Assembly: GCA_015272395.1 (NCBI GenBank)
Contig: JACYLQ010000007.1
Coordinates: 248,001 to 312,000 of the forward strand
DNA: 64,000 nt
Origin: Calothrix sp. C42_A2020_038
GTDB taxonomy: Bacteria; Cyanobacteriota; Cyanobacteriia; Cyanobacteriales; Nostocaceae
Direction: 5' to 3'
Shown here: piece by piece, positions 28,297 through 39,856 of the stretch
Layout: each line of letters starts with the position of its first letter
How positions within the stretch are numbered: position 1 is the stretch's first letter
Translations under genes and position numbers: made by a program
Notes under the pieces: generated by a model
Told to the model about the DNA's origin: nothing
The model's database searches: none
The model's input: the letters and a program-made list of their open reading frames with translations, nothing else

Positions 28297-28479
28297 TCAC
28301 AAGTTAATTACAAATGTTTAGTGGCTCGTATTTAGTCGAACATTGAGCTTAATGCTTTAATGCTAATTATTTTATACATTTAATTTTTTTGAAAATTCTC
28401 ATAAAATGACCTTTGTATGACTTCTTAACAAAGAGGTCAGTTATAAAGTGCTTCTGGTGATAGCTCATATAAAGGTTGA

Positions 28480-29619
<1,140 letters not shown>

Positions 29620-29746
29620 TTGATTTCTGAAACCAATTCTTAACTTTTGCAAACTCCACACTAATTATGAGCGCACTCATCACCAATTGCATGTTAAGAT
29701 ACATCTCAAATATTAAAGCTGTGTTGGATAGGTGGATTTTATTATC

Positions 29747-29881
29747 ATGGCTACATTGTTGTTGGCAAAATTGCCTGAAGCATACCAGATTTTTGACCCA
29801 TTGGTAGATGTTCTACCAATTATTCCTGTATTTTTCTTACTTCTGGCTTTTGTCTGGCAAGCAGCCGTAGGCTTTAGGTAA
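29747..29881 (+). CDS. psbK: photosystem II protein PsbK
   Basis: A 44-residue single-helix subunit of the photosystem II core. The sequence has a short precursor segment, then the conserved mature start '[20 protein letters not shown]' and the membrane helix '[17 protein letters not shown]', a near-perfect match to PsbK. A strong terminator follows at once. Confidence 0.96.
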
Positions 29882-29910
29882 GTTGATTTTGAATTATTAT
29901 TAATTGCTAC

Positions 29911-29940
29911 AGACAGGTAAATGGCCTGTCTTCTTTTTTC
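29911..29940 (+). terminator. psbK terminator
   Basis: AGACAGG (29911-29917) pairs with CCTGTCT (29925-29931) and is followed by TCTTTTTTC. Confidence 0.85.
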
Positions 29941-29963
29941 TTTACTAATCTTTACACAAATTA

Positions 29964-29969
29964 TTATAT
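29964..29969. other. left copy of 6-bp target-site duplication
   Basis: TTATAT directly before the outer end of the left IS remnant. The same TTATAT is found at 37517-37522 directly after the outer end of the right remnant. Confidence 0.65.
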
Positions 29970-30295
29970 CCCACATTCCGCAGGTAAGAGAGGAGATCAA
30001 TGGTATTTTTGATTAATGACACCATCATTATCAGAAATCAGAGTACAAGATATTGATCACTGCGGCATAGCGGCAGGGATAATAGACCAAATGTGTTTGG
30101 TAGAACAAATCAAGCTTCTTGGAATCCTTGTCCAACCCCCTTGGGGTTGGACAAGGTAGTTCAATCATCTGGTAACTGTCGCTGGCTTTCAACACATTAC
30201 CAATCTGACTGACGAGCGGCGATGGATTCTCCAATTTTTTGGTGCGCCTTGCCGAAAATATTATCTTCTTACCTGATTCACCTGCGGAATGTGGG
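29970..30295 (+). mobile_element. internally deleted IS1634-type element (left)
   Basis: A 326-bp mini-element with both terminal inverted repeats (CCCACATTCCGCAGGT at 29970; ACCTGCGGAATGTGGG at 30280-30295). Inside, ATG 30016 opens the DUF4277-type N-terminus 'SEIRVQDIDHCGIAAGIIDQ' up to about 30111. A perfect 14-bp hairpin CCTTGTCCAACCCC (30126-30156) marks the deletion junction. The frame resumes at about 30163 with the transposase C-terminus 'NLTDERRWILQFFGAP...KYYLLT' and stop at 30274. The catalytic DDE centre is gone, making it MITE-like. Its inner end truncates an ABC-transporter gene. Confidence 0.8.
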
Positions 30296-30454
30296 TTCGA
30301 CTACCACATCTACGGCAATACCCATCAGATAAGGTGGTGCTAGGTCTAATAGGGTACGTAGAATCGAACAAATAATTGCACCCCAAATTTGAGTTTGATC
30401 GGGTTTAGTATAGCGCAGTAGACACGAGAGGGGGTGAGATGGAGGTTTTGACAT
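30296..30454 (-). pseudogene. ABC transporter permease/ATPase, 5' stump
   Basis: Only the first ~50 codons remain: 'MSKPPSHPLSCLLRYTKP' then 'LLDLAPPYLMGIAVDVVVE', the start of the first membrane helix of a fused permease/ATP-binding exporter. The frame runs straight into the IS terminus at 30295 and stops within it. The rest of the gene is absent on the other side, where psbK lies. A start at 30472 is also possible. Such exporters sit in siderophore clusters, which fits the neighbouring genes. Confidence 0.7.
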
Positions 30455-30568
30455 GGTGATGGGCAGGTTCATAAAGGGAGCAAACTAAAAACTAAGCTTT
30501 TTTATAAAAATTGACTTTCTGCAATTAAATCGAATGAGATAATTTCCAGATGTGCATCTAGTCTAGAT

Positions 30569-31414
30569 ATGGCAAAATCTTCCGATATTAGTAGCAAAAA
30601 AATTATTAATCTTGCCCCCGATAAATGGGTAAAGTGGGTGACTAATATTCCCGACACCATAGTTAAAGAAATTCTGAATTCTGAGTATCAATGGATTAGT
30701 TGAGAAAATGATGTATTAATTTGTGCGGAGAGTCGTGAATATGGAAAATTTCCGGTTCTCAACGAAGTACAAATACGCTATAAATCAGATATGCTATTGC
30801 GTATTAATGCTTATATTGCTTTAGCCAGGGAAAAATATAAGTTACCAATTTATTCAGTATTGATTAATATTCTCCCAGATGGAAATGTCAACATACCTAA
30901 CTGCTACGAGTCAAATTTTGCTGGGTTACAAACGCGTCAAGATTATCGGGTGATTAATTTCTGGGAAGTTGATGTCAACGTTGCTTTTCAACAAGAAATT
31001 TTATCGTTGCTTCCCTTTGTACCTATACTCAAAGGAGGAGATGACGAGTCAACAATTCGAGAAGCATTAAGATTGCTGCGTGCTGATGAGCAGTTAAATC
31101 AGTTGGAGACGGTTTTAGCATTTTTTGCTACCTTTGTGTTAGAGAGTGAATTAGTTCAACAAATCATGAGGTGGGATATGGCAATTTTACGTGAGTCTCC
31201 TTGGTATCAGGAAATTGATAAACGTGGGGAAGTACGGGGACGACGAAAAGAAATTTTGTCTAGCATAGAAATGAGCTTAGAGGCGAAATTTGGCAGCGAT
31301 GGGTTAAAGTTATTTTCTCAAGTTTCCCCAATTTCTGATGTCGATAGATTAAGAGAGATTTTACGTAGCATTGTTGTTGCAAATAGGATTGAAGAAGTCC
31401 GAGGAATTTTGTGA
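30569..31414 (+). pseudogene. Rpn family PD-(D/E)XK nuclease-like gene with nonsense codon
   Basis: The full frame starts 'MAKSSDISSKKIINLAPDKW' at 30569 and matches a large cyanobacterial Rpn-like family to its end. It is broken by TGA at 30701-30703 after '...SEYQWIS', where relatives as I remember them have Arg; one CGA-to-TGA change explains it. Downstream 'LNEVQIRYKSDM' and 'NFAGLQTRQDYRVINFWEVDV' carry the nuclease-fold elements. A shorter product could start at ATG 30791 but would lack the N-terminal part of the fold. Such genes are often multicopy and linked to mobile DNA. Confidence 0.75.
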
Positions 31415-31525
31415 TTTGATTTTGTAGTTAGTAAGTAATTACGAATTACGAATTACGTCGCAGTCGATATTTACGAAATGATTGTGTCGATAGTATGAGG
31501 AAAACCCCCGTTGATAATTACTAAT

Positions 31526-31906
31526 TTACGAATTATTTTGTGGGGGAATTTGTGCGAAAATAGCAGGCTGCAATATTTCGGGAGTTTTTTTCCAAACTAC
31601 ATTTCCTTTATTACTGTTGATGTACAGTTGCATAAAGTCTAGTAAGGCTGTGGCAATTTCTCCAGGGGTGACATTGACGAAGAGATAGGTGGGTTTATCT
31701 GGACTGGCGACGGATACAACACAGCCATGATTGCACGCCCATAAGCAGCCTACTGGTTGAATTTCAATTTCATTATTTGGGAATTTTTCGGCGCATAAAG
31801 TGTTTAGTTGGTCAAGTAAAATAGTGCCATCAAATGGGGGATTATCTGGTCGTTTTTCAGATGAACGGTGGCAGGATTTACATACGAATACGGTGTGTTT
31901 GGGCAT
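31526..31906 (-). CDS. DUF1636 metal-binding protein
   Basis: A 126-residue protein with cysteine motifs 'FVCKSCHRS' and 'VGCLWACNHGCVVSV', the DUF1636 pattern, resembling thioredoxin-like 2Fe-2S ferredoxins. Genes of this family often accompany iron or metallophore transport genes in cyanobacteria and proteobacteria, but the function is unproven. It starts three bases after the fecB-type stop, as the last gene of the TonB receptor-fecB-DUF1636 operon. Confidence 0.82.
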   Translation of the reverse strand: MPKHTVFVCKSCHRSSEKRPDNPPFDGTILLDQLNTLCAEKFPNNEIEIQPVGCLWACNHGCVVSVASPDKPTYLFVNVTPGEIATALLDFMQLYINSNKGNVVWKKTPEILQPAIFAQIPPQNNS

Positions 31907-31909
31907 GGT

Positions 31910-32902
31910 TTAAGGTGTGTTGATGAGGTATTTTTCCAGATCATCAAGGATGACATCTGCGGCTAAGGGAGTTCGACCTCGCCAAGCAGTAGGATCAACA
32001 GAGTACACGCGCTTTTGCTGTACAACTTTGAGCTTTGCCCAGAGGGGATTTTTCTGAAGTCGCTTGAAATCTCGCTCACCAGTTTCTCGACCACCGTACA
32101 CGGCAACAAACATCACATCCCCATCTACCATGTCCAGACTTTCCTCCGAGAAGCGAAATCCTACCCTTGACTTGCCTTGTTGGGAGGGGGGACCCTGAAG
32201 TCCGACATCACTTAACACAGAGCCTGCGAAAGACTGTTCACTAAGAATTCCTCCACAACAAAAGAAGATAAATGAGATGGTTTTATGCCTATAGCGATCG
32301 CCTAATGCGGTTTTCAATTTCTCAACCCGTTGCTGGTAATGCTGCCAAACTTTTGCTGCTGCTTCCTGGCGATTTAAAACTTTAGCCATAAAATTGAAAT
32401 ACCACTTCCAATTTTGCTGGTCATCACGACGGTTGCCATCGAGCCAGTCATAAAAGACAGTTGGTGCGATCGCAGAGAGTTGAGGATAAATAGCTTGGTG
32501 ATTATGCTGCCATCCAATCATCACATCCGGTTTGAGTAAAATCATCCGCTCAATACTTGGCTCTGCCCATATTCCTAATAGTTCTATTCCTTTTGTTTTG
32601 TCTTGTAAATAATTGGGAAATGGAAAACGATGGTCATATTCAAAGACACTGGCAATGGGTTTGATCCCCAGTGCAATTGCATTGCCCAAAGCAGATGGAT
32701 TCAATGCCACAACTCGCTGAGGATCTTTGGGGATACAGGCTTTCCCTAGACTATGCTGCATGATATAACAGTCACTACCAGAAGAAATACTTCTCCTGAC
32801 ATCTTTCGGACTGGAAGGATGACAAGCAACCATCAACCAAGCCATAAGGAATCCTAGCAGGAGCAGCAATATGGGATAACCGAATGGTTTGCCCTTGATC
32901 AT
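31910..32902 (-). CDS. iron-siderophore ABC transporter substrate-binding lipoprotein
   Basis: A 330-residue periplasmic binding protein of the FecB/FhuD class. Signal peptide with lipobox LMVAC near residue 27, then 'PQRVVALNPSALGNAIALG' and 'LLKPDVMIGWQ', typical of cluster A-II siderophore binders. It captures ferric siderophore imported by the TonB receptor encoded 20 bases upstream and hands it to an inner-membrane permease, which is not in this window. Contains both GCGATCGC sites found in the window. Confidence 0.88.
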   Translation of the reverse strand: MIKGKPFGYPILLLLLGFLMAWLMVACHPSSPKDVRRSISSGSDCYIMQHSLGKACIPKDPQRVVALNPSALGNAIALGIKPIASVFEYDHRFPFPNYLQDKTKGIELLGIWAEPSIERMILLKPDVMIGWQHNHQAIYPQLSAIAPTVFYDWLDGNRRDDQQNWKWYFNFMAKVLNRQEAAAKVWQHYQQRVEKLKTALGDRYRHKTISFIFFCCGGILSEQSFAGSVLSDVGLQGPPSQQGKSRVGFRFSEESLDMVDGDVMFVAVYGGRETGERDFKRLQKNPLWAKLKVVQQKRVYSVDPTAWRGRTPLAADVILDDLEKYLINTP

Positions 32903-32922
32903 GTCTTAAACTCCTTAATGCC

Positions 32923-35673
32923 TTAAAACGTCCAAGAAACCGTGCCTTGAAGCGTAAACGGCTCACCATAGGAGATACGGTTGCGGCTGAACGCTCCATC
33001 AAAGTAAGTTATGTCAAAGAGGTTACGGATGTTAATTGCGGCTCGGAACCGATCCTGCTTATAAAAAACTGCCAAATCCGTCGTCAGGTAACTTGGCAAT
33101 TCAAAGGTGTTGGTATTGTCCCCTGCGCGATCACCCACATAAAACAGTCCCAATCCCAACCCTACACCTCGCAAATCTCCCTGTTGAATTTCGTAGGTTG
33201 TCCATAAGCTAACCGTGTGGGGAGTCGTCCTTTGAAAGCGTTTACCCACTTCGGCGGGGATGTTACTTCGAGTAATGCGAGAATCGTTATAGGCATAGCC
33301 TGCGAAGATATTCCAACCCGGTAAAATCTCCCCTGCAAGACTCAGTTCAATACCACGGCTATTTTGCTCTCCGGTCTGCACCGAGAACCCAGGATTGTCC
33401 GGATCGCTGGTCAATACATTCGAGCGAGTAACGTCATATAATGCGAGGGTTGTAGTAAGTCGATCACTTAAGTCTGATTTTATACCAAATTCGTACTGTG
33501 TTCCTCTACTGGGCTGAAAGGGGTTTCGTGTAAAGGATAAGCCAATAGTTGGCTCAAAGGATCTACTGTAGTTGGCATAGAAAGAGATAGGCGGAATCGG
33601 TTGATAGACAATTCCTACACGCGGACTGAAGGCATTACCCGATTGAACGGGTGCAGGATTCCCAAAATCTCCCGTTTGGGTGAAGGTATCAAAACGACCA
33701 CTTAACAACACTTTTAGGTTATCTGTTAAGTCAATTCGATTTTGCAGCAAGATACCCAGTTCATCAGTGGTAATGCTGTCGTCGGTAGCAGGGGTAAGTG
33801 ATCCTAAGGCTTGACCATAAATTGGATTAAATATATCGATCGAGGGTACAGTTCTTCTGCCAGCAGGATTGGCGCGATAAGTGTTTCTGCTCAGATCAAA
33901 ACCAAAAAGCAGTTCATGCTTAATAGAACCCGTCGAAAACTTACCAACGACATTGTTTGCTAACCTGTATTCACGAAATTGGTCATTAAGACCAAAGAAA
34001 GATCTAGGTAGTGTCCGATTATCTGCTGCCAGCGTGCCTGGTACTATCGAAACCCCATCGACATCTAGGCTGTCATACCTGAATTTAGTATTGAATGACC
34101 AACTGTTACTAAATCGATGGTCTAATGTAGTGGTAATCCGGAATTGAGTGTTATTTTCAACTCCTTCATTGACGTTGACATTACGAGGAATCTGACCATT
34201 CGGATTCGGCAGTACTGTTCCCACTGCAGGCAAGCCCAGAGGTACTCGCTCATTGGTCAAGTCTTTGTAAACCCCCTCAATGCTAAGGTTTGTATTTTTG
34301 CCCAAGGCAGCACTGATCACAGGTGCAATGACAAAGTTTCTCAGGTTATTTCCATCCAGAAAAGAACCTTGGTCTCGATAGGACGCATTGACTCGATAGA
34401 GGACTCTTTTGTTTGGATCAAGTGGCCCTGAAAAATCGACTTCACCTCGGTAGAGATTAAAACTACCGATGGTTGCTTCTGCAAAGTAGTAAGGCTCACT
34501 CAGAGGTTGCTTGGTGATATAGTTGACAGTACCACCTGGAGATAAAGAACCAAACAGGACTGCATTAGGACCCTGAAGCACCTCGATTCTATCAATTCCC
34601 GTGAGATCTGGGCCAATATTCGCACCAACGCCATTGAAGACGCGATTTACGAAGCCATCGAGGGCAGTTGAACTAAAGAAACCTCTGACCAAGATACGCG
34701 GTGCAGTAAAGTTGGAGGGGGCAGCGTTACGCACACTAGGAGCATTCCGCAAGGCAGTTGGGACATCTGCTCGTTGATCCCGTAAAACCTGCTGTGGAAT
34801 AACTTGAATCGATTGGGGAATATCCCGCAATGGTGTATCAGTTCGCGTCGCCGTACTTGCATTGGGTACACGATACCCTGTATCTTGCTGTCCGGTAACT
34901 ATTAACTCAATCGAGTCATCCTGTTGTGTTACTGGTTCATCTGGCGGTGTTTCACTCGTCGTCGGCTGTTCAACTTCAGGCTGCATTGCAGTTGTCGTCG
35001 CAGGTATCAAAGCAAAAATAAACCCTTCATCGCTATCAAATAACTCAATGGTTGGCAATCCTGTTTCCCCTGCTACTGTCACCCGAATCGTATTAGCATC
35101 CAGGTTTATCACTGTTATCTCCGTAATTCCTTCAACTGGTTTTTGAGAACGGAATGTAAACCCATCGCCATTGGGTAAACGCAGTTGAGCATTAGGAATA
35201 TCAGCGATAAAATTATTCTCAGCACTGCGATTAGTGATTTGTAGCTGTTCCCCTTTAGTCGTCTGTAAAATCACCTCCACACCTTGTTCAGTGGGATTAG
35301 CTTGTACTCCTGTTACCTGTATTACCTCTGAGGAAACTGGCGACTGCACAAGTAGTTCTGCACTCTGGGAAATCTGCTCAATCTCACTCAGTTGAATAGT
35401 ATTTCTGTTTGATTGATCAGACTTTTCTCTCTGCAAAGAGCTTGCCACTTGCGACTGAAAATATCGGTGCTTTCTATTACTAAGAGTCAATACTGGAGAT
35501 TTACTGTTGACAAACTCCTGAAATCTAGCTCCAACTGTGTCTTTGAATGTCGATTCCCCTACCGTTGCAGTGGAAGATTCACCTTGATTTGTCTCACTTC
35601 TAGCAGGAGTGCTAATCAACACCACAACTGCACCCGTCAGCAACAGACTTTGAAACAATTTATCTAACTTCAT
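32923..35673 (-). CDS. TonB-dependent siderophore receptor with AMIN domain
   Basis: A 916-residue outer-membrane receptor. Signal peptide (about 1-26), an AMIN-like domain at about 115-225 as in cyanobacterial receptors, then a TonB-box-like IELIVTG near 252. The plug domain follows ('DIPQSIQVIPQQVL', 'RILVRGF', 'IDRIEVLQGPNAVLFG.L.PGGTVNY'). A 22-strand barrel ends in the aromatic C-terminus 'TLQGTVSWTF'. First gene of the receptor-fecB-DUF1636 operon. The AraC-type regulator upstream probably controls it with its ferric siderophore as co-inducer. No convincing Fur box seen. Confidence 0.93.
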   Translation of the reverse strand: MKLDKLFQSLLLTGAVVVLISTPARSETNQGESSTATVGESTFKDTVGARFQEFVNSKSPVLTLSNRKHRYFQSQVASSLQREKSDQSNRNTIQLSEIEQISQSAELLVQSPVSSEVIQVTGVQANPTEQGVEVILQTTKGEQLQITNRSAENNFIADIPNAQLRLPNGDGFTFRSQKPVEGITEITVINLDANTIRVTVAGETGLPTIELFDSDEGFIFALIPATTTAMQPEVEQPTTSETPPDEPVTQQDDSIELIVTGQQDTGYRVPNASTATRTDTPLRDIPQSIQVIPQQVLRDQRADVPTALRNAPSVRNAAPSNFTAPRILVRGFFSSTALDGFVNRVFNGVGANIGPDLTGIDRIEVLQGPNAVLFGSLSPGGTVNYITKQPLSEPYYFAEATIGSFNLYRGEVDFSGPLDPNKRVLYRVNASYRDQGSFLDGNNLRNFVIAPVISAALGKNTNLSIEGVYKDLTNERVPLGLPAVGTVLPNPNGQIPRNVNVNEGVENNTQFRITTTLDHRFSNSWSFNTKFRYDSLDVDGVSIVPGTLAADNRTLPRSFFGLNDQFREYRLANNVVGKFSTGSIKHELLFGFDLSRNTYRANPAGRRTVPSIDIFNPIYGQALGSLTPATDDSITTDELGILLQNRIDLTDNLKVLLSGRFDTFTQTGDFGNPAPVQSGNAFSPRVGIVYQPIPPISFYANYSRSFEPTIGLSFTRNPFQPSRGTQYEFGIKSDLSDRLTTTLALYDVTRSNVLTSDPDNPGFSVQTGEQNSRGIELSLAGEILPGWNIFAGYAYNDSRITRSNIPAEVGKRFQRTTPHTVSLWTTYEIQQGDLRGVGLGLGLFYVGDRAGDNTNTFELPSYLTTDLAVFYKQDRFRAAINIRNLFDITYFDGAFSRNRISYGEPFTLQGTVSWTF

Positions 35674-35771
35674 TTATTTACCTACACTCCCTGACACCAC
35701 TTGGCACTATTTAATAAATCTTCTTAACTAAACTGGCAGTGTATATATAATAAGGAATTCGTATTTTTAAT

Positions 35772-35815
35772 TTGAACGCTAGAGGGATTTTTTTTGAACG
35801 CTAGAGGGATTTTTG
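35772..35815. repeat. tandem duplication at the 3' end of the araC-type gene
   Basis: The segment TTGAACGCTAGAGGGATTTT occurs twice head to tail. The inner copy contains the last codons and stop of the regulator gene, and the outer copy lies beyond the stop. This is a recent small duplication with no effect on the protein. Confidence 0.7.
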
Positions 35816-36820
35816 ACAATGCTGAAAGTATTGTTTGGGATTCAAGCCGAACTTTTTGCGGAAAGCCAAGGCAAAGTAACTACGACTATCAAAACCTACC
35901 CTAGATGCTACTTCTTCGACCTTCATTTCTCCTAATGCTAAAAGTTGCTTGGCTTTTTCCAGTTTATAGTCGTGTAAATATTTAAATGCAGATGTGCCAA
36001 AAATTTGACGAAAACCACACTTTAATTTGAATTCATTTAACCCTACCTGCCGTGCTAATTCTATTAAACTGGGTGGATTCTCTAAATTATTAAGTAAAAT
36101 CTCTTTTGCTTGATATATTTTATCAATATCGCTCAAATTTTTGCTGGGAGAGCGATAATTATCAACATTATCTTTCTGGAATTGCTGACAATAAAGCGTA
36201 ATCAATTCTATCGTCTTACTTTCCAAATACATCTGCTTCATTAAGCCTTGATGAGGACACTTGAGAATATGAGACAATACCAGCCACATTTGCTGTGTAA
36301 TTTCCCCTTGCTGATAATAAGGCTGTACTTTACCACCAATCACAGCTTGATGCAGATAAATTGGTATTTGTTCTAAATCTTCTTCCTCAAAACTTTGAAA
36401 AAATTGCTGCGGTTCAATTTCTAGATAAATTCGTGAAAACTTCTCTCCGGCTTTCCAGTATTCAGTTTCTTTGAGATCACAATTACATTCTGAATAATAT
36501 TTTCCTATTGATTCGTCAGTTATATCCGTTAAACCGTGGCGTTCAATTTTCACTTTTCCTGAGAGAAAAAAACTCAACCCAAATCGAGATTCATCTAAAC
36601 TATCTCTAATCCACACAAGGTCATCAGTAAAATTTACCTCAATTATCTCAACAGATAATCCATTGCGTAACGTTGTCCAGCATCGATGGATATTACAGAC
36701 ATCAAGGACTTTTCCTTGGTGGATAGTTTCAACCCCCTTTGATTGTCTGAAAAATGTACCCTCTTGCTCACTTTCTGCCCACAGTTCTTGCCAGTCTATC
36801 TCTGTAACAATTTTTGTCAT
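35801..36820 (-). CDS. AraC family regulator (PchR-like)
   Basis: A 339-residue regulator. The C-terminal ~95 residues form the double helix-turn-helix ('LIELARQVGLNEFKLKCGFR' and 'VEEVASRVGFDSRSYFALAF' then 'KKFGLNPKQY'). The N-terminal domain resembles PchR-type sensors that bind ferric siderophore. It lies 127 bases upstream of the TonB receptor gene in the same orientation, an arrangement typical of autoregulated siderophore-uptake loci. Confidence 0.9.
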   Translation of the reverse strand: MTKIVTEIDWQELWAESEQEGTFFRQSKGVETIHQGKVLDVCNIHRCWTTLRNGLSVEIIEVNFTDDLVWIRDSLDESRFGLSFFLSGKVKIERHGLTDITDESIGKYYSECNCDLKETEYWKAGEKFSRIYLEIEPQQFFQSFEEEDLEQIPIYLHQAVIGGKVQPYYQQGEITQQMWLVLSHILKCPHQGLMKQMYLESKTIELITLYCQQFQKDNVDNYRSPSKNLSDIDKIYQAKEILLNNLENPPSLIELARQVGLNEFKLKCGFRQIFGTSAFKYLHDYKLEKAKQLLALGEMKVEEVASRVGFDSRSYFALAFRKKFGLNPKQYFQHCQKSL

Positions 36821-36974
36821 GGTTTAATAATAATTCCTCTCATCGTCAAGCTGATATATGATTAGTGCTAGACACTTCACAGATTTACTTGTGTATGCGT
36901 GAAGATGTTTAGATGGTTAGGGTCTGAGTTGGTATTTTTCTGAAGTATATTAATAATTATTAGCAATAACTAGG
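36821..36974. other. intergenic between araC and IS remnant
   Basis: AT-rich, no gene. It should hold the araC-type promoter. No IS terminus is found here, so the right IS copy has lost its inner end. Confidence 0.4.
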
Positions 36975-37516
36975 TAAAAATATTAACATAAAATGTCTTT
37001 AAACGCTACTGGTAAAAAATAAAGGGTCTTTGAGAAAACGAAAACCGCGCTCAGTGTACATGAAACGAGCTTGAGTCTAGGTGTAAACTTTCCTGGTTAA
37101 CTCCAAACTTCTCTGCTGCTGCCAATGCTACTGTCACAAATACTTGTGTTAACCCGGCCTCATACAGTTTGTCCAAAACTCTACCTAATCGGTCATCATT
37201 TAAGTGTTCTGGTTTTATCCCTTCACCTAGTAAATGTTCTGTGGCTTTGCCCGCAAAAAACTTCTCAAATAGGTATAATGGCGCACTTAACAGCCCCAAA
37301 CCATTGAGAGTCATCGCTTTGATGGCTTGACCTGGACTGACTATTTCTTGCTGGTGTGTTCCTAGTATTTGGTTGATTTGTTCTACCAAACACATTTGGT
37401 CTATTATCCCTGCCACTATGCCGCAGTGATCAATATCTTGTACTCTGATTTCTGATAATGATGATGTTATTCATCAAAAATACTATTGTTCTCCTCTCTT
37501 ACCTGCGGAATGTGGG
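36975..37516 (-). mobile_element. IS1634-type element remnant (right)
   Basis: The intact outer terminus ends at 37516, inverted relative to the left copy. Minus-strand frame 37416-37051 encodes the DUF4277 N-terminal domain ('AGIIDQMCLVEQINQI', 'EGIKPEHLNDDRLGRVLD', 'LHLDSSSFHVH'). Next to it, in another frame (37058-37002), lies the C-terminal motif 'TERGFRFLKDPLFFTSSV'. An internal deletion thus fused the ends and shifted the frame. The upstream start is also out of frame compared with the left copy. No inner inverted repeat. Confidence 0.8.
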
Positions 37517-37522
37517 TTATAT
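37517..37522. other. right copy of 6-bp target-site duplication
   Basis: TTATAT directly after the right IS terminus; pairs with 29964-29969. Confidence 0.65.
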
Positions 37523-37633
37523 TTACATCAATTAATAAATTTTAATATTTGTTAACATTTGCCTATAATAGTGGGCAAAGGAATTAGTTTCCATAGTTGA
37601 AATCACAAATAGAGCGTTCGTGAGGTATGTGTA

Positions 37634-37930
37634 ATGGGTAACATGAATTTTGTGAAGGAGAACAAAGAAGTCATCGCAGCAAACGGCGCCAATCTGCGGC
37701 TATCAGCAATGCAAAATGGAATTGATATATACAAAGTGTGGGGCAAAATGATGAATTGCGGTGGTTATGGTCAATGCGGTACTTGCATTGTCGAAATTGC
37801 CGAAGGTATGGCAAATCTTTCACCCCGTACAGATGCCGAAAACCGTATTTTGAAGAAAAAGCCAGAAAACTACCGTCTTGCCTGCCAAACTCTAGTTCAT
37901 GGTCAAGTCAGCATAGTAACCAAGCCTTAA
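37634..37930 (+). CDS. 2Fe-2S ferredoxin
   Basis: A 98-residue [2Fe-2S] protein with cysteines 42, 48, 51 and 84 (C-X5-C-X2-C-X32-C). This is the adrenodoxin/Isc-like spacing rather than the C-X4-C-X2-C of plant-type PetF. It ends '[14 protein letters not shown]'. It probably transfers electrons in a pathway I cannot name. ATG 37634; psbM follows 119 bases downstream on the same strand. It is the first native gene after the foreign block and carries the first GGCGCC site in 8.8 kb. Confidence 0.88.
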
Positions 37931-38049
37931 TCGATACGATTTATCGATTGTCAAAGCTTTACTTGCAAAAACATATTTTTTACCACCAATCTTGTAGATA
38001 ATGGTATCCTAAAATTGTTGACTGGATAAGCTAGAGAGGGTTTCTTGCT

Positions 38050-38169
38050 ATGCAAACTAATGACTTGGGATTCATAGCGAGCATTTTGTTCGTACTAGTC
38101 CCCGCCGTTTTTTTAATCCTTCTTTACACCGTCACAGCTAGCCGTGAAGGTAGTAATAAAGATACTTAA
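38050..38169 (+). CDS. psbM: photosystem II protein PsbM
   Basis: A 39-residue one-helix subunit at the photosystem II dimer interface. 'MQTNDLGFIASILFVLVPA' followed by 'VFLILLYTVTASREG' matches PsbM across its full length. No other candidate frame nearby. Confidence 0.95.
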   Translation: MQTNDLGFIASILFVLVPAVFLILLYTVTASREGSNKDT

Positions 38170-38302
38170 GAAGATTGTATCAAAATGACAACATAGGAAC
38201 TGGGTATAGAGTGCAGGGGTATTGGCAAAAACTCAATATATTATAGAAATACTATTGTTTTCCGATCTCCTGTTCTCTATTCCCCATTCCCTATTTGTTT
38301 AT

Positions 38303-39190
38303 TTAAGTAGCATCTGTGCGCGCGAGTAATACAGGACAGGTAGCGTTAACGCGAACATAATCAGAAAGTGAAGCACCTAACAAACGGTCTAGGTCAACAA
38401 AGCTTTTAGCGATTGAAGGACGACGATCGGGCGAACCCATCAACAGCAAATCGATATTATGCTCGTCTGCCAAGCGACAAATTTCTTGTCCGGCTCGACC
38501 ACTGCTTGTAATAATCGCATCTTGGCCAGAACTACCACTACTCAAAAGACAACGAGCTTGTATACCATACTTTTTGGCTTCGGCAGCAGCAGCAGCTAAA
38601 ACAGGATTGTCTGCCGGATTTGGTTCAGGTTTATTTGATTTATTCAGCCATTCGGTATTAACATTGGCCAAAAATAACTCGGCGCCTTTTAGATCTTGCA
38701 TTAAGAACAAAGCTAGCTTCAAGCAGTGTTTTGCTGCATCCGAGTTGTCCATTGCGACCATAATTCGGTTAATCTTTTTGACATAAATGTCATCTTTAAC
38801 CAGTAGCATTGGACGTGAAGATAATTGAAAGACGTATTGACTAACAGAGTTAGATAAAATCGATTGTAATCGTTTGAGTCCACGTGAACCCATAATAATT
38901 AAATCTGCTTCGATTTCATCTGCTACTTGACAAACTACATCTTTTGGCTCACCTTGACGCAAAATTGAAGAAACTTGACTTGGGTCTAAGTTCAAATATT
39001 GAATTGCGTTTGCTAATATTTTGCCACCTTCTTCCCATTTAGCGGTCATTCCTTCCGCGCTAGTTTGAGGAGGTACTACGTGTAAAACGGTTACTTTCGC
39101 GCGCTTTGCAGCTGGTAAATCAACGAAAGTTTTGAGCATTTCTTCAGCGTGTCCCAATCCGGAGACAGCTAGCAATATTCTCTCGATCAT
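38303..39190 (-). CDS. tandem universal stress protein
   Basis: 295 residues forming two UspA domains (about 1-132 and 139-295). Each has the ATP-binding pattern: 'IIMGSRGLKRLQSILSNSVS' in the first and 'LLMGSPDRRPSIAKSF' in the second, where the glycine motif is less regular. Each begins with the short strand of the fold ('RILLAVSG', 'NRIMVAMDNS'). Usp proteins bind ATP or AMP and aid stress survival; the specific role is unknown. Single gene. Confidence 0.88.
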   Translation of the reverse strand: MIERILLAVSGLGHAEEMLKTFVDLPAAKRAKVTVLHVVPPQTSAEGMTAKWEEGGKILANAIQYLNLDPSQVSSILRQGEPKDVVCQVADEIEADLIIMGSRGLKRLQSILSNSVSQYVFQLSSRPMLLVKDDIYVKKINRIMVAMDNSDAAKHCLKLALFLMQDLKGAELFLANVNTEWLNKSNKPEPNPADNPVLAAAAAEAKKYGIQARCLLSSGSSGQDAIITSSGRAGQEICRLADEHNIDLLLMGSPDRRPSIAKSFVDLDRLLGASLSDYVRVNATCPVLLARTDAT

Positions 39191-39856
39191 TTTACTTGTC
39201 CACGTTCAGGTTTGGGAGCTAATAGTTATTAAAATACTTGGGTTTTACTTTGAGTAATTAACTTTGAATATCCCAAGTACTTTAGCAAGTTGGTTCGCGT
39301 AAATAGGCACTATCAATCAACAGTCAAAATCAAAATATTTTTAACTGTTAACCAATATCCATAGTTTATTATGTTAAATTTACGCAGGATGATTGTTGAT
39401 TTTGTTTAGTTCTAAGTCGATAGACCAGTCTAATTAGAGCAGTAAAGAGTGCTTTGTAAATACACTGTTATATCTATCTACTTACTTCTGAGTATACTCT
39501 ATTATTTTCTACTAATAAGTTTAACAATTGTTATCTAAGTTATTAGTCTTAATCTATATTTACCAATTTTAATTAATCAAAATTATATAATTTGTTGCAA
39601 TCTACGCGAAAAAATACATAAAATTAAATTTTGTAAAAAATAAACAGTAATTTTTCTATTTCTTAGTTACGACAATATTAACTTTTTTATAGATGGTTTT
39701 AATCTACAGCTATATTAATAATAATTAACGATACGATTGGATTCGTTTTTGTAAAATGTTGTAGAGACGTGTAAAACATCGCGTCTCTAAATCCAAACAT
39801 TTGACTTTTGATGTTACGCACGTAAAGCCTAACCTCCTTTCCTACGAGGAAAAAGA
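39191..39856. other. long AT-rich intergenic stretch
   Basis: No gene seen. A hairpin AGAGACG...CGTCTCT (39764-39788) belongs to the 'GACGCG/GAGACG' repeat type also seen at 12871 and 51335. The Usp promoter is presumably near 39200. Confidence 0.4.

What the first reader, a model, noticed from the sequence alone, without database searches (positions are those of the whole stretch)
29964..37522. Composite transposon carrying a siderophore-uptake operon between psbK and the fdx-psbM locus
Two inverted, internally deleted IS1634-type elements have matching outer termini (CCCACATTCCGCAGGT at 29970 and its complement ending at 37516). The outer flanks are the same 6-mer TTATAT, as expected for a single insertion of the whole unit. 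The cargo is an AraC regulator, AMIN/TonB receptor, FecB-type lipoprotein and DUF1636 protein. An ABC-transporter stump is cut exactly at the inner IS end, showing that the IS landed in a larger siderophore cluster before the block moved. Removing the block would leave psbK directly before the ferredoxin gene.
Basis: partly seen in the sequence, partly recalled or inferred. Interest (0 to 1): 0.8.

Follow-up and report, generated by a model that had tools for sequence, protein, structure and literature searches.

The report
IS1634 composite transposon carrying iron-uptake genes
Two broken copies of a common jumping gene flank a set of iron-uptake genes that most likely jumped as one piece into the gap between two photosynthesis-related genes of a cyanobacterium: a clear, apparently no longer mobile example of a well-known way in which bacteria move genes around.

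Summary
A 7,547-bp block (29970-37516) lies between psbK and a ferredoxin gene, bounded by two inverted relics of one IS1634-family element, 5' ends outward, and flanked by identical TTATAT hexamers. A full-length relative is 1,691 bp with a 541-aa IS1634 transposase, 16-bp ends and a 6-bp target duplication. In all 6 same-genus genomes, and 22 of 29 relatives' loci overall, psbK and fdx are 154-312 bp apart without the block; removing block plus one TTATAT from the window leaves 199 bp. At the left inner end, 94% homology to another genus' cluster stops exactly at the IS edge, where the ABC-exporter gene continues in the relative. Two cargo segments are 94% identical to that genome, four host genes only 77-87%: the cargo is foreign. 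No intact DUF4277-type transposase was found in the genome. IS1634 composite transposons are known (Tn6097): new member of a known kind.

The parts
29964..29969 (.). left outer target-site duplication TTATAT
   Evidence: sequence; 6-bp duplications of the full IS
29970..30295 (+). left IS1634-family relic, both 16-bp ends present: IS positions 1-144, 51 bp with a 14-bp palindrome (30126-30156), IS positions 1561-1691; a miniature, internally deleted derivative
   Evidence: blastn to full element L110; palindrome; two other miniature derivatives with other deletion points, L205 and L206
30296..30472 (-). 5' stump of an exporter-type ABC transporter gene, cut at the inner IS end; TTCGAC at 30296-30301 is the expected old target site (inferred)
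   Evidence: 94% DNA match to L140 starts at 30295/30296 and the gene continues there
30569..31414 (+). Rpn-like (name recalled) reading frame broken by in-frame TGA at 30701-30703
   Evidence: ORFs; open 281-aa homologue in L140 and open 277-aa copy elsewhere in the genome; no Pfam or NCBIfam match for these
31526..31906 (-). DUF1636 protein, 126 aa
   Evidence: PF07845 E 2.2e-36
31910..32902 (-). FecB-type periplasmic binding protein, 330 aa; lipoprotein by its N-terminal lipobox-like sequence (inferred)
   Evidence: PF01497 E 1.4e-18; NF008501 below cut-off
32923..35673 (-). AMIN-domain TonB-dependent siderophore receptor, 916 aa
   Evidence: PF00593, PF07715, PF11741; TIGR01783 above cut-off
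35801..36820 (-). AraC-family regulator, 339 aa
   Evidence: PF12833 E 2e-20
36870..37000 (.). about 130 bp of unassigned sequence between the araC upstream region and the right relic
   Evidence: only short weak matches in 5 other of 217 genomes, best E 1.8e-4, at most 3 candidates scored per genome
37001..37516 (-). right IS1634-family relic: IS positions 1-462 and 1319-1373, inner end missing, catalytic part deleted
   Evidence: blastn to L110; DUF4277 E 4e-36
37517..37522 (.). right outer target-site duplication TTATAT
   Evidence: sequence
29732..29881 (+). psbK (left neighbour), followed by a terminator-like hairpin at 29911-29931
   Evidence: PF02533 E 1.6e-26; hairpin stems kept in the 9 relatives aligned
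37634..37930 (+). 2Fe-2S ferredoxin gene (right neighbour); promoter-like TTAATA-16-TATAAT at 37542-37569 lies outside the block
   Evidence: PF00111; (number of promoter-like sites equals that of shuffles)

Best explanation
The block is a decayed IS1634-family composite transposon. One IS copy inserted into an ABC-exporter gene of an iron-uptake cluster in another lineage (TTCGAC site; inferred). A second inverted copy lay upstream of araC. Transposase acting on the two outermost ends moved the whole segment, probably by cut-and-paste, into the psbK-fdx gap and made one 6-bp duplication, TTATAT (ends, orientation, duplication and empty site shown; the jump itself inferred). The landing point lies after a psbK terminator-like hairpin and before an fdx promoter-like site, so it is probably harmless (inferred). 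Both IS copies lost their catalytic parts, before or after the jump, and no intact transposase with DUF4277 was found in the genome, so the unit is most likely fixed now. The cargo still has open frames for a siderophore receptor, binding protein, DUF1636 protein and AraC regulator, and probably adds a siderophore specificity that feeds FecCD permeases encoded elsewhere in the genome (inferred).
For: Inverted relics of one element with 5' ends outward, outer arms 95% alike. Identical TTATAT flanks, matching the element's own duplication: of 17 copies with both ends found (among 25 loci looked at), 9 have 6 bp, one 7, one 5, and 6 none; all 13 hexamers used for the matrix have T at position 2, as do TTATAT and TTCGAC. 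Empty site in 6 of 6 same-genus genomes; 22 of 29 loci had psbK within the 3.3-kb stretch, with 154-312 bp gaps, and none of the 29 had cargo or IS matches; window minus block and one TTATAT = 199 bp. Exact cut of the ABC gene at 30295/30296 against L140. Cargo foreign: 94.5% over 1,136 bp and 93.7% over 1,061 bp to G016, while tgt, psbK, fdx and usp are 78.8, 86.5, 78.5 and 76.7%; best same-genus FecB is 44%. A cluster ABC-DUF1636-FecB-TonB-AraC in the same order and strand, without the Rpn-like gene, with an open 600-aa ABC gene is in G031 (L142). IS1634 composite precedent Tn6097. FecCD: 5 matches over cut-off, 4 of them strong.
Against: The right relic has no inner end and about 130 bp beside it are unassigned, so it cannot be shown that it was once a complete copy next to this cargo. 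The two relics have different internal deletions, and the left relic's 3' piece is only 88% like L110. The joined site is 23-45 bp longer than the same-genus gaps (199 vs 154-176 bp) and both flanks carry a TTTACA motif, so the target was not exactly like the relatives'; two IS1634-family elements are reported to make long, variable duplications (PMC2266710), which could matter here. No genome examined showed the whole unit, but the family and order DNA searches scored only the best 2 candidates per genome. 6 of 17 full copies lack a matching duplication. In G016 the two 94% segments lie on different contigs, and the FecB and TonB genes beside the ABC-Rpn segment are only 37% and 67% identical to the window's.
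Confidence: 0.87

Rival explanations
1. The cargo entered by homologous recombination or another route, and the two IS copies inserted independently on either side; the identical hexamers are chance or target preference.
For: The IS prefers AT-rich sites with T at position 2, which raises chance identity; 6 of 17 full copies lack a matching duplication; the two relics have different deletions.
Against: Chance about 0.4-0.8% (small sample); the left IS abuts foreign ABC sequence directly on its inner side and host sequence on its outer side, with different inner and outer hexamers (TTCGAC, TTATAT), so it did not insert alone into this site; the outer edges of the inserted DNA coincide exactly with IS ends on both sides.
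Confidence: 0.06
2. A single IS inserted at TTATAT and later recombined with IS copies next to a siderophore cluster elsewhere in the same genome (insertion or inversion by homologous recombination).
For: Recombination between copies does seem to happen: in G160, L111 and L159 have exchanged flanks ATATAA/TTGTGC and L161/L162 share CTACAT.
Against: A single insertion has one 5' and one 3' outer end; here both outer ends are 5' ends (144 and 462 bp of 5' sequence). Inversion between two inverted copies leaves unlike outer flanks (reasoning). No second closely alike FecB gene in the genome, next best 36%.
Confidence: 0.05
3. The block is a plain genomic island or decayed plasmid/phage insertion in which IS relics are bystanders.
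For: Cargo is foreign and slightly richer in G+C (41.3% vs 38.7-39.0% in the 10-kb flanks).
Against: The stretch between the two TTATAT copies is bounded on both sides by IS ends; no tRNA in 28400-39300 and no integrase or other mobility gene among the block's proteins scanned.
Confidence: 0.02

Closest known systems
Tn6097 (Paracoccus ferrooxidans), composite transposon of two ISPfe2 copies, IS1634 family (PMC3281130, passages seen)
   Same: IS1634-family composite transposon; ISPfe2 has 6-bp direct repeats; carries accessory genes
   Different: 17,759 bp, two identical IS copies, captured in a trap plasmid; here 7,547 bp, unlike broken copies, other cargo, no movement shown
IS1634 family of insertion sequences (PMC2266710, passages seen)
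   Same: 1500-2000 bp, ends of the pattern C-----YT, 5-6 bp direct repeats; the full relative here is 1,691 bp, starts CCCACATT, NF033559 413 bits
   Different: the window copies are deletion relics without a catalytic domain; IS1634 and IS1549 themselves are reported to make long variable duplications
AraC-TonB receptor-FecB modules of Anabaena PCC 7120 alr2587-alr2597 (as tabulated in PMC3610870, passages seen)
   Same: AraC regulator, receptor and iron(III)-dicitrate-type binding protein side by side
   Different: there resident gene arrays, here an IS-bounded single module with DUF1636; orthology to those genes was not tested
IutR AraC-type activators upstream of TonB receptor genes in Synechocystis PCC 6803 (PMC11221513, passages seen)
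   Same: AraC-family regulator next to a TonB-dependent receptor
   Different: regulation by the window AraC is inferred only

Membership tests
composite transposon | two copies of one IS flanking non-IS cargo | tested here: met
   (relics, not intact copies)
composite transposon | outermost ends intact and flanked by one direct target duplication of the length the IS makes | tested here: met
   perfect 16-bp ends, TTATAT x2; the IS mostly makes 6 bp
composite transposon | empty target site in relatives | tested here: met
   22 loci with psbK and fdx both in reach, of 29 examined, all without the block; a TTATAT at the homologous base could not be shown because the spacers diverge
composite transposon | transposition of the unit as a whole | not testable with these tools
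   no second copy of the unit found; needs a transposition assay with an intact transposase
IS1634 family | IS1634-type DDE transposase | tested here: met
   full relative L110: NF033559 413 bits, PF14104, PF01609; the window relic has DUF4277 only
IS1634 family | 5-6 bp direct repeats, ends starting with C, 1500-2000 bp | tested here: met
   criteria
siderophore-uptake operon | outer-membrane receptor and periplasmic binding protein | tested here: met
   TIGR01783 above cut-off, PF01497
siderophore-uptake operon | inner-membrane permease (FecCD) and ATPase in the same operon | tested here: not met
   none in the block; FecCD genes lie elsewhere in the genome
siderophore-uptake operon | co-transcription and siderophore transport | not testable with these tools
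   needs expression and uptake experiments

The most novel reading that the evidence does not exclude
IS1634 composite transposons act as carriers that spread xenosiderophore receptor modules between cyanobacterial genera; this unit arrived already packaged from a G016-like or unsampled donor, with a miniature IS derivative as one of its two ends, and landed in a tolerated slot between photosystem genes.
Probability: 0.3. Interest if true: 0.45.

Novelty: new member of a known kind. Interest (0 to 1): 0.3.

Why it matters
It is a readable case (not seen in 6 sampled congeners) of an iron-uptake module gained by a cyanobacterium through an IS-bounded unit, with one donor-side junction, the target site and the duplication all visible. 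It shows how receptor repertoires could be passed on, but the mechanism is textbook.

Tried and rejected
Donor of the whole unit: not found. DNA searches of 217 family genomes and 388 order genomes (only matches of E 1e-150 or better asked for) gave only parts: 94% ABC-Rpn and araC in G016, mostly 80-84% araC-TonB in others. Both scored only the best 2 candidates per genome, so a weaker or fragmentary copy could be missed. The genome-contig scan gave one locus, Myxacorys almedinensis L139, FecB 68% and TonB 67% aa.

Miniature-element (MITE) idea for the left relic: not rejected. (217 genomes, at most 3 candidates scored each) pointed to two other miniature derivatives, which I then fetched: L205 in G084 (294 bp, IS 1-157 and 1592-1691, perfect ends) and L206 in G193 (264 bp, IS about 1-127 and 1554-1691, one end degraded); neither has a clear target duplication, and their deletion points differ from the left relic's. 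So the left relic is one of a recurring kind of deletion derivative, but not a copy of a shared family. Its 51-bp insert resembles a stretch in congener G002 that is not part of an IS (79.7% over 59 bp, L207); the meaning is open.

More composites: the exact 5'-end pattern occurs in 11 of 217 genomes, 12 copies in G160 alone; the listed places have no inverted pair closer than about 60 kb. This exact pattern misses diverged copies (also the right relic of the window itself), so it does not exclude others.

Right inner junction: 36866-37003 has only short weak matches (5 other genomes of 217).

A DUF4277 transposase in trans in the same genome: PF14104 has 3 matches; L203 also lacks the catalytic part, one is a 29-position fragment, the third is the right relic. 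An intact one was not found, within the 50-contig assembly; IS1634-like transposases without DUF4277 were not searched for.

Literature: no paper held all of 'composite transposon', 'siderophore', 'cyanobacteri', 'TonB-dependent'. IS1634 with composite transposon: 9 listed, two opened at passages. DUF1636: 2 listed, one opened at passages; it relates DUF1636 to thioredoxin-like [2Fe-2S] ferredoxins. Cyanobacteria with FecB and AraC: 2 listed, both opened at passages. One search listed 12 IS1634/cyanobacteria papers and one search listed 12 of 20 on horizontal transfer and siderophores; none of these was opened. No paper was read whole.
Full report
What is there. The window belongs to a 6.5-Mb genome in 50 contigs whose six sampled congeners are 8.7-12.4 Mb. 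Between psbK (29732-29881, PF02533) and a 2Fe-2S ferredoxin gene (37634-37930), which is followed by psbM (38050-38169, PF05151), lies a block of 7,547 bp (29970-37516). It begins and ends with the same perfect 16-bp sequence in inverted orientation, and the hexamer TTATAT directly abuts it on both sides. A third copy of the 16-mer, at 30280-30295, closes the left relic.

The element. The outer 149-bp arms of the two sides are 95% complementary. DNA search of 217 family genomes found full relatives; the best, L110 from G237, is 1,691 bp with perfect 16-bp ends and a 541-aa transposase that matches NF033559 (IS1634 family) with 413 bits, PF14104 and PF01609. On it, the left relic is positions 1-144 plus 51 extra bp plus 1561-1691, and the right relic is 1-462 plus 1319-1373. 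Both have their 5' end outward. Both lack the catalytic region; the right one lacks its inner end. Miniature derivatives like the left relic, with other deletion points, exist in G084 and G193. Only these two places in the genome match the right relic's DNA.

Target duplication. Of 12 loci and 13, 8 and 9 had both ends. Among these 17 copies, 9 have a 6-bp duplication, one 7 bp, one 5 bp, and 6 none. Two of the six (L111, L159) carry each other's hexamers and two (L161, L162) share one, as expected from recombination between copies. The tabulated range for the family is 5-6 bp, with two members reported to make long variable ones (PMC2266710, passages). With 13 hexamers as a matrix (the nine 6-bp cases, the 7-bp one cut to six, the two exchanged ones and the shared one; the 5-bp case left out), TTATAT has probability 0.0036, and two independent insertions agree with probability about 0.008 (small sample).

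Empty site. In one search, 59 of 60 genomes have the ferredoxin; 30 loci were fetched, one being the window's own. Of the other 29, 22 hold psbK within the 3.3-kb stretch, at 154-312 bp from fdx, and none of the 29 has cargo or transposase matches; in 7 psbK lies elsewhere or out of reach. The six congeners have 154-176 bp. The window's gap without block and one TTATAT is 199 bp. Alignment with 9 relatives places the junction in the spacer, after a terminator-like hairpin whose stems are kept in all nine, and upstream of a TATAAT-like site of fdx (the scan finds no more promoter- or terminator-like sites than in shuffles, so the hairpin rests on its conservation and the promoter is only a guess). 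The window's spacer is longer than in congeners, and TTTACA occurs on both flanks; a small earlier duplication, or a longer target duplication since worn down, is possible.

Inner left junction. Window 30295-31429 matches G016 (L140) at 94.5% over 1,136 bp; the match begins exactly at the IS edge, and in L140 the ABC gene goes on as ABC_membrane and ABC_tran pieces in two reading frames, probably by a frameshift there. An open 600-aa ABC gene next to DUF1636, FecB, TonB and AraC in the same order and strand, without the Rpn-like gene, is in L142 of G031; there araC is 79%, DUF1636 83%, TonB 59% and FecB 41% identical.

Foreign cargo. araC matches G016 at 93.7% over 1,061 bp on another contig. 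Host genes compared with G016 give tgt 78.8, psbK 86.5, fdx 78.5 and usp 76.7%. The best same-genus FecB is 44%, best in the family 59%, and Myxacorys almedinensis has 68%. The cargo is therefore a mosaic with mixed nearest relatives, and transfer from outside the genus is well supported; the donor of the whole is unknown.

Function. The receptor passes TIGR01783 (TonB-dependent siderophore receptor); the binding protein matches PF01497 and, below cut-offs, several ferric-siderophore proteins. AraC-receptor-FecB sets are known in Anabaena (PMC3610870, passages), and AraC-type IutR regulators act on receptor genes in Synechocystis (PMC11221513, passages). No importer permease or ATPase is in the block; the genome has FecCD genes elsewhere, 5 matches over the cut-off. 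So the block supplies receptor, binding protein and regulator, and would rely on resident inner-membrane machinery (inferred).

Fate. The Rpn-like frame has a TGA at 30701-30703 where L140 and a second copy in the same genome are open. The only three DUF4277 matches in the genome are relics or fragments. The unit is most likely immobile today.

Verdict. The composite-transposon reading is well supported, in an ordinary class: Tn6097 is an experimentally captured IS1634 composite (PMC3281130, passages). New here are the host group, the cargo and the site (as far as the searches show), not the mechanism.

Noticed in passing
L203 (G000:C31:123000-126000), 646-1409: Another IS1634-family relic in the same genome has lost the catalytic part at nearly the same place as the right relic (about aa 124 joined to aa 410; right relic aa 139 to 425).
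   Followed up: partly
L111, L159, L161, L162 (G160): IS copies in one genome have exchanged or shared target duplications, a trace of recombination between distant copies.
   Followed up: partly
L205 (G084), 340-633; L206 (G193), 386-649: Miniature, internally deleted derivatives of the same kind of IS (294 and 264 bp) with deletion points unlike the left relic's.
   Followed up: partly
window 30126-30156; L207 (G002) 266-324: 14-bp perfect palindrome in the 51-bp insert at the deletion point of the left relic; 79.7% match over 59 bp to a congener stretch that is not part of an IS.
   Followed up: partly
window 29941-29969 and 37517-37545: Both outer flanks carry an alike stretch around TTTACA, so the joined site looks duplicated by about 20 bp relative to congeners, beyond the 6-bp duplication.
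   Followed up: partly
window 30569-31414; L204 982-1815; L140 14497-15342; L146: Rpn-like gene family without a Pfam or NCBIfam match, next to DUF1636-FecB-TonB modules in G016 and G008 and 94% alike in DNA between genera.
   Followed up: partly
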